The notes below the pieces were generated by a model. That model was given only the letters and a program-made list of their open reading frames with translations. It did not search any database and was not told where the DNA came from. The position numbers were made by a program, and so were the translations under genes. Source: Hyphomonadaceae bacterium (GTDB lineage Bacteria > Pseudomonadota > Alphaproteobacteria > Caulobacterales > Aquidulcibacteraceae). From it: a DNA stretch of 33,240 nucleotides. Below, one piece after another: positions 1-29,432 of the stretch (the first letter of the stretch is position 1; every line of letters begins with the position of its first letter). The DNA lies in assembly GCA_021731965.1 (NCBI GenBank), contig JAKFWI010000025.1:1-33240 (forward strand), read 5' to 3'.

Positions 1-1437
1 CCATATTATCTTGATAATCGGCCCCTTTTCGCTGTATCGCGCCATGCGATTGCGCGAGGTGCCGCGGGTGAAATACGCGCCGCGCTTGGGATGGGTGCCG
101 GGATAGGTGCGGTAGGCGATGCCATCGCCATCCACATCGGTGTAGCGGCCAAAGAAGGTGTCGGCTTCCAGCGCCGCCCCATCGAGGATCTTGCCGCGGT
201 CCAGCCGCCGGCTCTCGTCCCAAGTGAAAGGCGCGACCAGCCATTCCTGCATGCCGATATCGAGATCGAGCATCACAAAAATCGTGGTTTGCAGCCGATC
301 GGCCAAATCGAAGGCTTGCGCGCCCATCTCGAAGCATTCGCCCGGATCGGCGGGCAGCAGCAGCACGTGCTTGGTGTCCCCGTGCGAGGCGTAGGCGGCC
401 AGCAGCAAATCCGATTGCTGCGTGCGCGTCGGCATGCCCGTGGACGGCCCGCCGCGTTGCACATCGAAAATAACCGCTGGGATTTCGGCGAAGTAAGACA
501 GCCCAATGAATTCGTTCATCAAGGAAATGCCGGGGCCGGACGTGCAGGTGAAAGCGCGTGCGCCGTTCCAGGCCGCGCCGATCACCATGCCGATTGAGGC
601 GATCTCGTCCTCGGCCTGCACGATGGCGTAGCGCCTGGTGCCATCCGCATCGGTGCGCAGCTCGGCGCAATAGCTGGCGAAGGCCTCGGCCAGGGAGGTT
701 GAGGGCGTGATCGGATACCAGGCGCAGACGCTGGCCCCGCCATAGACTGCCCCCAGCGCCGCCGCCGCATTGCCTTCGACGAAAATGCGCTTGCCGACAT
801 TATCCGCGCGGCGGATCTGCAAGCCGATCGGCGCGAGCTTCGCGCTGGCCCAATCGCGCCCCAAATGAAAGGCCTGCACATTGGCACCGATCAATTTCGC
901 CTTGCTGGCGAACGCTTCGGCCAACAAGGTTTCGACCACCTGTGGCTCAATACCCAGCAAATGCGAAAGCGCGCCGACATAGGCAATGTTTTTGAACAAT
1001 TGGCGGTCGCGCGGCAACGTGTAGGCTTCGTTGCAGATGGCGGTCAGCGGCACGCCCAATACGTGGATATCGGGCCGGAATTTGGACTGCGGCATCGGCT
1101 TGGTGGAATCGTAGAAAAGATAGCCGCCCGGCAGCAATTCGGCGACATCGTCATCCCAGGTTTGCGGATTGAGCGCGACCGCCAAATCCACCCCGCCGCG
1201 CCGACCCAGATGGCCCGCTTCGCTAACGCGCACCTCATACCAGGTGGGCAGGCCCTGGATGTTGGATGGGAAAATGTTGCGGGGGGCCGCCGGCACGCCC
1301 ATGCGCAGCACGGCTTTGGCGAACAGGCCGTTGGCACTGGCTGAGCCCGATCCGTTGACATTGGCAAATTTGATAACGAAATCATTGACCGCGGCGATGG
1401 CGCGGGCCCCCGTTTGGTCTTGTTTCACCGCCTGCAT
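1..1437 (-). CDS. 2-oxoacid:acceptor (ferredoxin) oxidoreductase, fused gamma-alpha subunit (KorA-like), 3' end cut by window start
   Basis: Reverse-strand reading from 1437 is open for 479 codons to the window edge (absent from the ORF track because it has no stop). Translation begins MQAVKQDQTGARAIAAVNDFVIKFANVNGSGSASANGLFAKAVLRMG (gamma domain) and later reads GNAAAALGAVYGGASVCAWYPITPSTSLAEAF and GPGISLMNEFIGLSYFAEIPAVIFDVQRGGPSTGMPTRTQQSDLL, typical of alpha subunits. Confidence 0.88.
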   Translation of the reverse strand, partial: MQAVKQDQTGARAIAAVNDFVIKFANVNGSGSASANGLFAKAVLRMGVPAAPRNIFPSNIQGLPTWYEVRVSEAGHLGRRGGVDLAVALNPQTWDDDVAELLPGGYLFYDSTKPMPQSKFRPDIHVLGVPLTAICNEAYTLPRDRQLFKNIAYVGALSHLLGIEPQVVETLLAEAFASKAKLIGANVQAFHLGRDWASAKLAPIGLQIRRADNVGKRIFVEGNAAAALGAVYGGASVCAWYPITPSTSLAEAFASYCAELRTDADGTRRYAIVQAEDEIASIGMVIGAAWNGARAFTCTSGPGISLMNEFIGLSYFAEIPAVIFDVQRGGPSTGMPTRTQQSDLLLAAYASHGDTKHVLLLPADPGECFEMGAQAFDLADRLQTTIFVMLDLDIGMQEWLVAPFTWDESRRLDRGKILDGAALEADTFFGRYTDVDGDGIAYRTYPGTHPKRGAYFTRGTSRNRMARYSEKGPIIKIIW

Positions 1438-24254: not shown

Positions 24255-24326
24255 GGCGATTGTGGGGAAGGAAGTTCGCCTTTGTGCCGTTGTCGCCCTG
24301 CGAGGACAGCACAAAGGAAATTCTCC

Positions 24327-25160
24327 ATGAAACGGAAGTTGGAAGTTTTGCTCGCGGCCGCGGTGCTGGCCGCCACCTTTGCCCCGATCGCCGATGCCTC
24401 CGCCCGGGAGCGGCGCTCGGCCGGATCGGTTACCACCCAGCGCGGGACCTATCAGGGCCAAGCGGTGCGCACCCGCCAGCCAGGCCAGGTGAGCCGTGAT
24501 GCCACGGTCACGGGGCCCAAAGGTGCCCAGCAATCGGTGAGCCAACGCCGCCAGCGTGATGCCGCGGCCGGTACCGCCAGCGCGGATCGCACCCGCACCT
24601 TCTCCGATGGCAGCTCGCGCAATGTGAATAACCAGGTGCAGCAAACCGGCGAAGGGGCCTATGCCGCCCAGCGCACCGTCACCGGCCGCAACGGCGAAAC
24701 CCGCACCCAAACGGGCCAATTCGCCACCACGCCCACAGAAAATGGTCGCAGCACCACAGGCCAAATCCAAACCCAAAACGGCCAAAGCGTTGATTACAAT
24801 CGCGATGTCAGCCGCTCGGAAAACGGCCGCGCCGTGAGCAGCAGCGCCACCTTCGCCGATGGCACCAGCGCGTCACGCGAAAGCCAAACAGCCTGCGCGC
24901 AAGGCGCCGGCTGCACGACCAGCGCCACATTGACGGATCGCCAAGGCCGGCAAACCAGCAGCACGCAGAACGTGCAGCGCACCGATACGGGGGCGGTTTT
25001 GGCCCGCGACACCACCTTCCCGGATGGCAGCACGCGCAGCGTCGATACCGCCACGACCCGCAATGGGGATGGCTCGGCTTCGGCGACCCGCACGGTCACC
25101 GGGCGCGATGGGCAAACCCGCACGCAATCAGCGGAAGGCTCGACTTCCGTCACGCCGTAA
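24327..25160 (+). CDS. Secreted protein built from degenerate T-x-x-DG/GxxR-type repeats, unknown function
   Basis: Signal peptide MKRKLEVLLAAAVLAATFAPIADASA, RBS-like AAAGGAAA; repeated units TFSDGSSRNV/TFADGTSASR/TFPDGSTRSV and TVTGPKGAQQS/TVTGRNGETRTQ/TLTDRQGRQTSS/TVTGRDGQTRTQ. Confidence 0.8.
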   Translation: MKRKLEVLLAAAVLAATFAPIADASARERRSAGSVTTQRGTYQGQAVRTRQPGQVSRDATVTGPKGAQQSVSQRRQRDAAAGTASADRTRTFSDGSSRNVNNQVQQTGEGAYAAQRTVTGRNGETRTQTGQFATTPTENGRSTTGQIQTQNGQSVDYNRDVSRSENGRAVSSSATFADGTSASRESQTACAQGAGCTTSATLTDRQGRQTSSTQNVQRTDTGAVLARDTTFPDGSTRSVDTATTRNGDGSASATRTVTGRDGQTRTQSAEGSTSVTP

Positions 25161-28095: not shown

Positions 28096-28562
28096 GCGGC
28101 GCGGCGGCGCGCATGGCCATCGGCCAGCGGCGCGGGCTGACGGGTGGGGAAATCGCCCTCTCGCACGAAATGTTCGGTGCCAGCATCGCCTATGATCGCG
28201 TGCGCATCGTGCAGGCCGTGCCGCTGGCCTTCGGGGCCATGGTGCCTTTGGGCGGCACCATTGTTTTCGCGCGCTGGCGCGCCGCGTTGGATTTCACCGT
28301 GACCCCGGTGGAGGAGCAAGGCTGGTTCATCCATGAAATGGCGCATGTCTGGCAGGCAAAGCGAGGCATTCTCTTGCCGCTGGCCAAGCTGGCCGCCTTG
28401 GGGCGTGGGGCCTATTCCGTTCGGCTGCGGCCCGGCCAGCCATTGGCCGCTTATAACATCGAGGCGCAGGCCGAAATCGCCCGCTTGGTCTGGCGCGCCC
28501 GCATTCGCAGGGCCGAGCCGGATCACGAATTGGAGGCCCTCTGGGCGCAGGCTTTGGGCTGA
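28092..28562 (+). CDS. Small protein with HExxHxxQ motif (vgr-related/zincin-like), unknown function
   Basis: GLTGGEIALSHEMFGASIAYDRVRI...GWFIHEMAHVWQAKRG. GTGA overlap with preceding stop; alternative ATG at 28113. The track ORF from 27669 is too long. Confidence 0.8.
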   Translation: MSGAAARMAIGQRRGLTGGEIALSHEMFGASIAYDRVRIVQAVPLAFGAMVPLGGTIVFARWRAALDFTVTPVEEQGWFIHEMAHVWQAKRGILLPLAKLAALGRGAYSVRLRPGQPLAAYNIEAQAEIARLVWRARIRRAEPDHELEALWAQALG

Positions 28563-28635: not shown

Positions 28636-29301
28636 CTAGAGTTGCTTCGTGATCCCAGTGCAGCATCCTCCTTCGCCATTGGTCGTGTCACTGCAGCAAG
28701 CGGAATTGCCGCAGCATGTCAGGCATCCCGTGCTGCAGCACCGATCGCCGCCAGCCACGTATGTAAAATCAGGGATTTGCGCTCCTGCGAGCGGTTCAGT
28801 GGCGAGCTCCTGCCAGAGAGAACAGGACTTCACAGGGTTTGGAACTTTCGTTAGTTTCCGCGCGACGACTTCTTTGGCGACGACTGAAAAGTGCAGCAAT
28901 GCTGCACCGCGTGCTGAAGGCGCAGGGCTCGTCACGCTTGCGCGTTCACCAGCCAAAAAAGAAAGCTGGGGAGAAGAGATCTTCTTCCACGCGCCCGATT
29001 CGTTGATGAAAATCTGTGCTTGCATCGCCAATCTTTTCGCGCCTGCTGGGGCTGGGCGCGTAGCATCTGGCGCAATCATCAATCGCACGGCATAGCCGCC
29101 TGGCTTATTGACGGATACAAACGCCTCGTCTGCGGCTTTCGAGATGATCACGGGTGAGCCCAAAATGGTGTTCCCTTGTTGGATTTGCAATTGAATTTCG
29201 AAAAACTGCTCCGGTGCAGAGCTGGTTTGAGCAAAAACAGATGCAGCTCCGCAAAATATCAACCAAATGGTCAAAAATATTGAATGAAGCGCGCGTCTCA
29301 T
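28636..29301 (-). CDS. Secreted protein with cysteine-rich C-terminal tail, unknown function
   Basis: Signal peptide MRRALHSIFLTIWLIFCGAASVFAQ, beta-rich-looking middle, tail DRCCSTGCLTCCGNSACCSDTTNGEGGCCTGITKQL (CCx3Cx2CCx4CCx9CC). Confidence 0.82.
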   Translation of the reverse strand: MRRALHSIFLTIWLIFCGAASVFAQTSSAPEQFFEIQLQIQQGNTILGSPVIISKAADEAFVSVNKPGGYAVRLMIAPDATRPAPAGAKRLAMQAQIFINESGAWKKISSPQLSFLAGERASVTSPAPSARGAALLHFSVVAKEVVARKLTKVPNPVKSCSLWQELATEPLAGAQIPDFTYVAGGDRCCSTGCLTCCGNSACCSDTTNGEGGCCTGITKQL

Positions 29302-29432
29302 TTTCTATTCTCCAACCATTCGATAAAAATCAACCATTGATTGTACGTAGCGTCAAGCGCGAATCTAAGCAATTTACATGGCACGATAATGCCAGGTTGG
29401 TTTTGCTCGCAATCTCCTGCTAATCTTGCCCC

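What the first reader, a model, noticed from the sequence alone, without database searches (positions are those of the whole stretch)
28636..29301. Secreted protein ending in a dense cysteine tail (CCx3Cx2CCx4CCx9CC)
Seen: signal peptide, a ~150-residue middle with few cysteines, then DRCCSTGCLTCCGNSACCSDTTNGEGGCCTG with nine Cys in about 30 residues, four of them as adjacent CC pairs besides one single. The gene and its upstream region look less GC-rich than the neighbours. Inference: disulfide-knotted or metal-binding exported tail, possibly a toxin-like, adhesive or surface-attachment module, and possibly recently acquired.
Basis: partly seen in the sequence, partly recalled or inferred. 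Interest (0 to 1): 0.6.

Follow-up and report, generated by a model that had tools for sequence, protein, structure and literature searches.

The report
Rare bacterial secreted protein, cysteine-rich tail
A rare family of exported bacterial proteins, found here in only a handful of related alphaproteobacteria and absent from the family libraries searched, carries a fast-changing beta-sheet body and a nearly unchanging 28-residue tail with nine or ten cysteines, which most likely forms a tiny disulfide-stapled module that does the protein's work outside the cytoplasm.

Summary
The minus-strand gene 28636-29301 encodes 221 aa with a signal peptide, one mid-protein Cys and a tail CCx3Cx2CCx4CCx9CC. 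No known family matches it (Pfam, NCBIfam, PHROGs, PDB; none in plasmids or phages). It is not an isolated oddity: four relatives with intact frames in sampled genomes of the same order, one more in an unplaced MAG, and two broken copies keep the tail, roughly CCSxGCLxCC[GW]x(2-6)CCSDxxNCxxGxCC. Pairwise identity is 23% in the body, 16% in the linker, 69% in the tail, so selection acts on the tail. AlphaFold gives a confident ten-strand beta body (residues 25-146) and a disordered linker and tail. Low GC is real but no sign of recent acquisition: every member is 7-12 GC points below its surroundings, including two at the same place in one genus. This genome has no paralogue with the tail, and there are no conserved neighbours, so a sorting tag or RiPP cluster is unlikely. 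Best reading: an exported beta-sandwich presenting a disulfide-stapled C-terminal mini-module; target unknown. The window copy is divergent: it lost one tail cysteine and gained a short C-terminal extension.

The parts
28636..29301 (-). gene for the 221-aa exported protein (CDS 28639-29301 plus stop)
   Evidence: (single copy in the genome)
29230..29301 (-). signal peptide, residues 1-24, cleavage expected after VFA
   Evidence: sequence by inspection; a hydrophobic N-terminus is present in all intact relatives
28864..29229 (-). beta-sandwich body, residues 25-146, two similar five-strand halves
   Evidence: AlphaFold2 block pLDDT mostly 71-94, strands 9-18..46-54 and 66-77..110-121 (mature numbering)
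28741..28863 (-). variable, predicted disordered linker (residues 147-187) with one Cys (160) present in all members whose linker was aligned
28657..28740 (-). conserved cysteine tail, residues 188-215
28639..28656 (-). C-terminal extension (residues 216-221, GITKQL) absent from the relatives, which all end within one or two residues of the last CC
29302..29432 (.). A+T-rich gap (42.7% GC) to the divergent carbon-nitrogen hydrolase gene; presumed to hold the promoter, but no sigma-70-like match was found

Best explanation
The gene encodes a Sec-exported protein of a small, undescribed family patchily present in one alphaproteobacterial order (the order that also holds the Parvularculaceae MAG L.E.AP.15). 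A fast-diverging ten-strand beta body (predicted) carries, on a flexible linker, a 28-residue C-terminal module of 9-10 cysteines (shown). In the oxidising periplasm DsbA/DsbB would pair these cysteines into a compact, disulfide-stapled mini-domain (inferred) that is displayed or released and binds a conserved partner outside the cytoplasm (inferred). The body would act as carrier or anchor (inferred). The single linker Cys, which gives the typical member an odd total of 11, may bond to another chain (inferred). The most likely role is a secreted binder or inhibitor of an extracytoplasmic target, used as an accessory function that lineages gain and lose.
For: Tail 69% mean pairwise identity against 23% body and 16% linker; non-Cys tail positions still 60%. 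In the congeneric pair pN is 0.11 in the tail and 0.32 in the body, with pS about 0.8 in both. All twelve invariant tail positions are Cys, Gly or Asp. Hydrophobic export signal in all intact members. DsbB in 6/6 and DsbA-type thioredoxin in 5/6 host genomes. Confident beta body, disordered linker. Rare, patchy distribution with two decayed copies.
Against: The typical member has 11 mature Cys, while exported disulfide proteins tend to have even numbers (PMC7678975); this would also fit a metal site or a free thiol. AlphaFold gives no confident tail fold, which is uninformative with eight sequences. There is no partner, operon or phenotype to name a target. The window copy lost a tail Cys and may be drifting.
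Confidence: 0.5

Rival explanations
1. The tail is an extracytoplasmic metal-binding module (metallothionein-like, or copper/zinc storage); the body is a periplasmic carrier.
For: Nine to ten Cys in about 28 residues, odd total of 11 in typical members; invariant Gly and Asp between Cys pairs.
Against: Exported through Sec into an oxidising compartment with DsbB present. No His in any of the eight tails (one His in L194 apart) and Met in one only. No metal-handling neighbours recognised in the intact loci. No Pfam metallothionein match.
Confidence: 0.2
2. The protein is a precursor: a leader-like beta body and a Cys-rich core peptide that is clipped off and modified (RiPP- or bacteriocin-like), acting on rival bacteria.
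For: Tail conserved and at the extreme C-terminus, linker variable and disordered; patchy distribution and broken copies, one near a transposase-like ORF.
Against: No conserved neighbour in the four unrelated loci read; no modification enzyme, protease-transporter or immunity gene recognised beside it. The body is a folded domain of about 120 aa rather than a short leader.
Confidence: 0.13
3. The tail is a C-terminal sorting or anchoring signal.
For: Fixed position at the C-terminus and higher conservation than the body.
Against: Only one protein in the genome carries it. There is no C-terminal transmembrane helix or Arg cluster. No other body bearing the tail was found in the all-genome pattern scan.
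Confidence: 0.04
4. The window copy is a decaying relic: it lost one tail Cys and reads on past the usual stop.
For: NCP to NGE in the tail and the GITKQL extension, unlike every relative; two other copies in the order are frameshifted; no homologue in 59 other genomes of its family.
Against: The reading frame, signal peptide and all other conserved tail residues are intact.
Confidence: 0.2

Closest known systems
Granulin/epithelin module (Pfam Granulin; spacing recalled from memory)
   Same: Several CC pairs and a CCxDxx[HN]CP-like stretch (tail: CCSDxxNCPxG); exported.
   Different: Granulin has 12 Cys with longer gaps (x5 to x8) in about 60 residues; the tail has 9-10 Cys in about 28. No Pfam match for any tail, no PDB match.
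Disulfide-rich miniproteins in general (knottins, conotoxins, hevein-like)
   Same: Short exported Cys-dense module with a fixed framework.
   Different: Here it is a bacterial C-terminal appendage on a beta-sandwich; the framework CC-x3-C-x2-CC-x(2-7)-CC-x5-C-x(3-4)-CC has no library match; disulfides are not shown.
Secretin beta-domain (phage f1 pIV, InvG, RcpA)
   Same: Foldseek lists secretins among weak hits for the body.
   Different: Best secretin hit E 0.038, TM 0.27; no PDB hit with E below 0.001; no secretin Pfam match.
Tail-less 156-170 aa secreted beta proteins of the same order (L209-L214)
   Same: Match the body profile (E 2.3e-9 to 2.7e-4).
   Different: No tail, most end in ITIKGTPF or similar; other neighbourhoods.

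Membership tests
Granulin (PF00396) | Profile match | tested here: not met
   No Pfam match for the protein or any of eight tails at E up to 10; HMMER filters limit short queries.
Granulin (PF00396) | 12 Cys in C-x5-6-C-x5-CC-x8-CC-x6-CC-xDxxHCC-Px4-C spacing (recalled) | tested here: not met
   Tail has 9-10 Cys with much shorter gaps.
C-terminal sorting tags (PEP-CTERM/LPXTG-like) | Many proteins per genome share the tag | tested here: not met
   Single copy in a 95% complete assembly.
C-terminal sorting tags (PEP-CTERM/LPXTG-like) | Transmembrane helix and basic cluster after the motif | tested here: not met
   Tail ends the protein.
RiPP/bacteriocin precursor | Adjacent modification, export or immunity genes | tested here: not met
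   No shared neighbours; unrelated genes beside it. Distant enzymes not excluded.
Disulfide-rich secreted miniprotein | Export signal | tested here: met
   By inspection of the window copy and five intact relatives; no predictor run.
Disulfide-rich secreted miniprotein | Conserved Cys framework | tested here: met
   Nine Cys invariant in eight tails, a tenth in seven of eight.
Disulfide-rich secreted miniprotein | Paired disulfides | not testable with these tools
   Needs mass spectrometry; DsbB present in hosts.
Metallothionein-like | Metal bound by the Cys cluster | not testable with these tools
   Only a negative Pfam scan is available.

The most novel reading that the evidence does not exclude
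The tail is a new disulfide-stapled bacterial mini-domain, with a framework not seen in known knottins, granulins or conotoxins, that acts as a secreted effector or inhibitor against other cells, with the beta body as a delivery scaffold.
Probability: 0.2. Interest if true: 0.75.

Novelty: new variant of a known kind. Interest (0 to 1): 0.42.

Why it matters
It adds an undescribed, rare exported protein family whose only strongly conserved part is a very dense Cys tail. If the tail folds as a disulfide miniprotein it would be a new natural scaffold in Gram-negative bacteria, where such modules appear uncommon (own knowledge). It also shows that low GC here is a family trait rather than a mark of recent transfer.

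Tried and rejected
Homologues in the window's own GTDB family: the hits read were chance (aconitase, other frames; two searches were a failed script and a wrong-strand reading, corrected). Tail pattern across one genome per species for 84,980 species: 112 stretches, only three true members, the rest mostly GC-repeat frames. Same pattern in IMG/VR: 42 stretches, none a member. Plasmids and phages: none. Class-wide profile: only the window gene itself. Rfam: none. Empty-site test with the neighbouring hydrolase: the neighbourhood is not kept in relatives, so inconclusive. Foldseek of the body: no PDB hit with E below 0.001; one uncharacterised marine phage protein at 1.4e-4, not pursued. Profile self-comparison to look for the internal repeat gave only the trivial full match. 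Literature searches found nothing on this framework.

Full report
Observation. The ORF at 28636-29301 on the minus strand encodes 221 residues. It is the Cys-densest stretch among the 308 frames of 60 aa or more in the window, and no shuffle of the mature protein reaches it. The gene is 54.0% GC with GC3 55%. The 20 other window genes checked have GC3 of 68-83%, and the 131-base gap upstream is 42.7% GC.

Family. The protein has no match in Pfam, NCBIfam, PHROGs or the PDB, nor in plasmids or phages. The 59 other held genomes of its GTDB family gave only chance hits among those I read. A sample of 398 genomes of the order gave true relatives: L070/L168 (E 2.4e-11, MAG RI_41), L071/L169 (E 2.8e-8, Parvularculaceae MAG L.E.AP.15) and L073 (tail 70% identical). 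A profile then added a decayed copy L208 and, in the family of L168, L215 and the frameshifted L216/L217. A DNA pattern for CCxxGCxxCCGxxxCC, run over one genome per species for 84,980 species, gave 112 stretches. Only three are members: L168, L169 and L173/L194 from the MAG B61T3L11. That pattern would miss variant spacings such as L073 and L215, so the count is a lower bound. A profile search of 385 genomes drawn from the class found only the window gene. The family is therefore rare and, as far as sampled, centred on one order.

Where selection acts. Across five intact members the mean pairwise identity is 23% in the body, 16% in the linker and 69% in the tail; the non-Cys tail positions still reach 60%. 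In the congeneric pair L073/L215, pS is about 0.8 in both regions (saturated), while pN is 0.32 in the body and 0.11 in the tail. The eight tails share twelve invariant positions: nine Cys, two Gly and one Asp. The tail is thus the constrained part.

Anatomy. AlphaFold2 with ten sequences predicts residues 25-146 confidently as ten strands in two similar sets of five; most of the linker and tail is below 50 pLDDT. The tail alone gives pLDDT 62, which is no basis for a disulfide map. Foldseek finds no solved structure below E 0.001. Shorter tail-less relatives of the body occur in the order (L209-L214).

Genome context. The window gene stands alone between a small uncharacterised gene and a divergent carbon-nitrogen hydrolase. 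The loci of L194, L073, L168 and L169 share no neighbours; within one genus L073 and L215 both lie beside the same RNA methyltransferase gene. This argues against a gene cluster and, for that genus, for vertical inheritance.

Low GC. In all six intact copies the gene is 7-12 points below its surroundings while following host GC: 0.54/0.62 (window average), 0.58/0.69, 0.54/0.66, 0.45/0.57, 0.45/0.55, 0.39/0.46. Because this also holds where the gene is vertically inherited, low GC is a trait of the family and does not show recent transfer into this genome.

Mechanism. Shown: export signal by inspection, conserved tail, predicted beta body. Inferred: disulfide pairing. DsbB is present in six of six hosts, a DsbA-type thioredoxin in five of six. 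Typical members have 11 mature cysteines, an odd number, while exported disulfide proteins tend to even numbers (PMC7678975); one Cys may be free or bridge to a partner, or the tail may bind metal. The window copy has 10, having replaced the NCP motif by NGE, and extends six residues beyond the usual end. It is either a variant or an early relic.

Verdict. Function stays open between a disulfide mini-domain (favoured), a metal site and a processed peptide.

Noticed in passing
window 24282-25160 (+): 292-aa exported repeat protein rich in T, G, R and Q with repeated TGRDGQTRTQ-like units.
   Followed up: no
L208:1486-1809 and upstream (G086): Decayed family copy: signal peptide and first strand in one frame, second half and tail in another, with part of the body missing.
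   Followed up: partly
L216:2-1176 (G821): Frameshifted family copy close to a transposase-like ORF.
   Followed up: partly
L179 (Phycisphaerales MAG): 89-aa frame with DCCPAAVCCEAGCDECCGEGCEKCCGSTDCC, a different Cys-rich sequence that met the same DNA pattern.
   Followed up: no
window 28098-28559 (+): 154-aa protein with an HEMAHVWQ stretch and no Pfam match, next to the tail gene.
   Followed up: no
outside the window: UniProt A0A8D9FS26: Uncharacterised marine phage protein with a predicted structure similar to the body (Foldseek E 1.4e-4, TMt 0.55).
   Followed up: no
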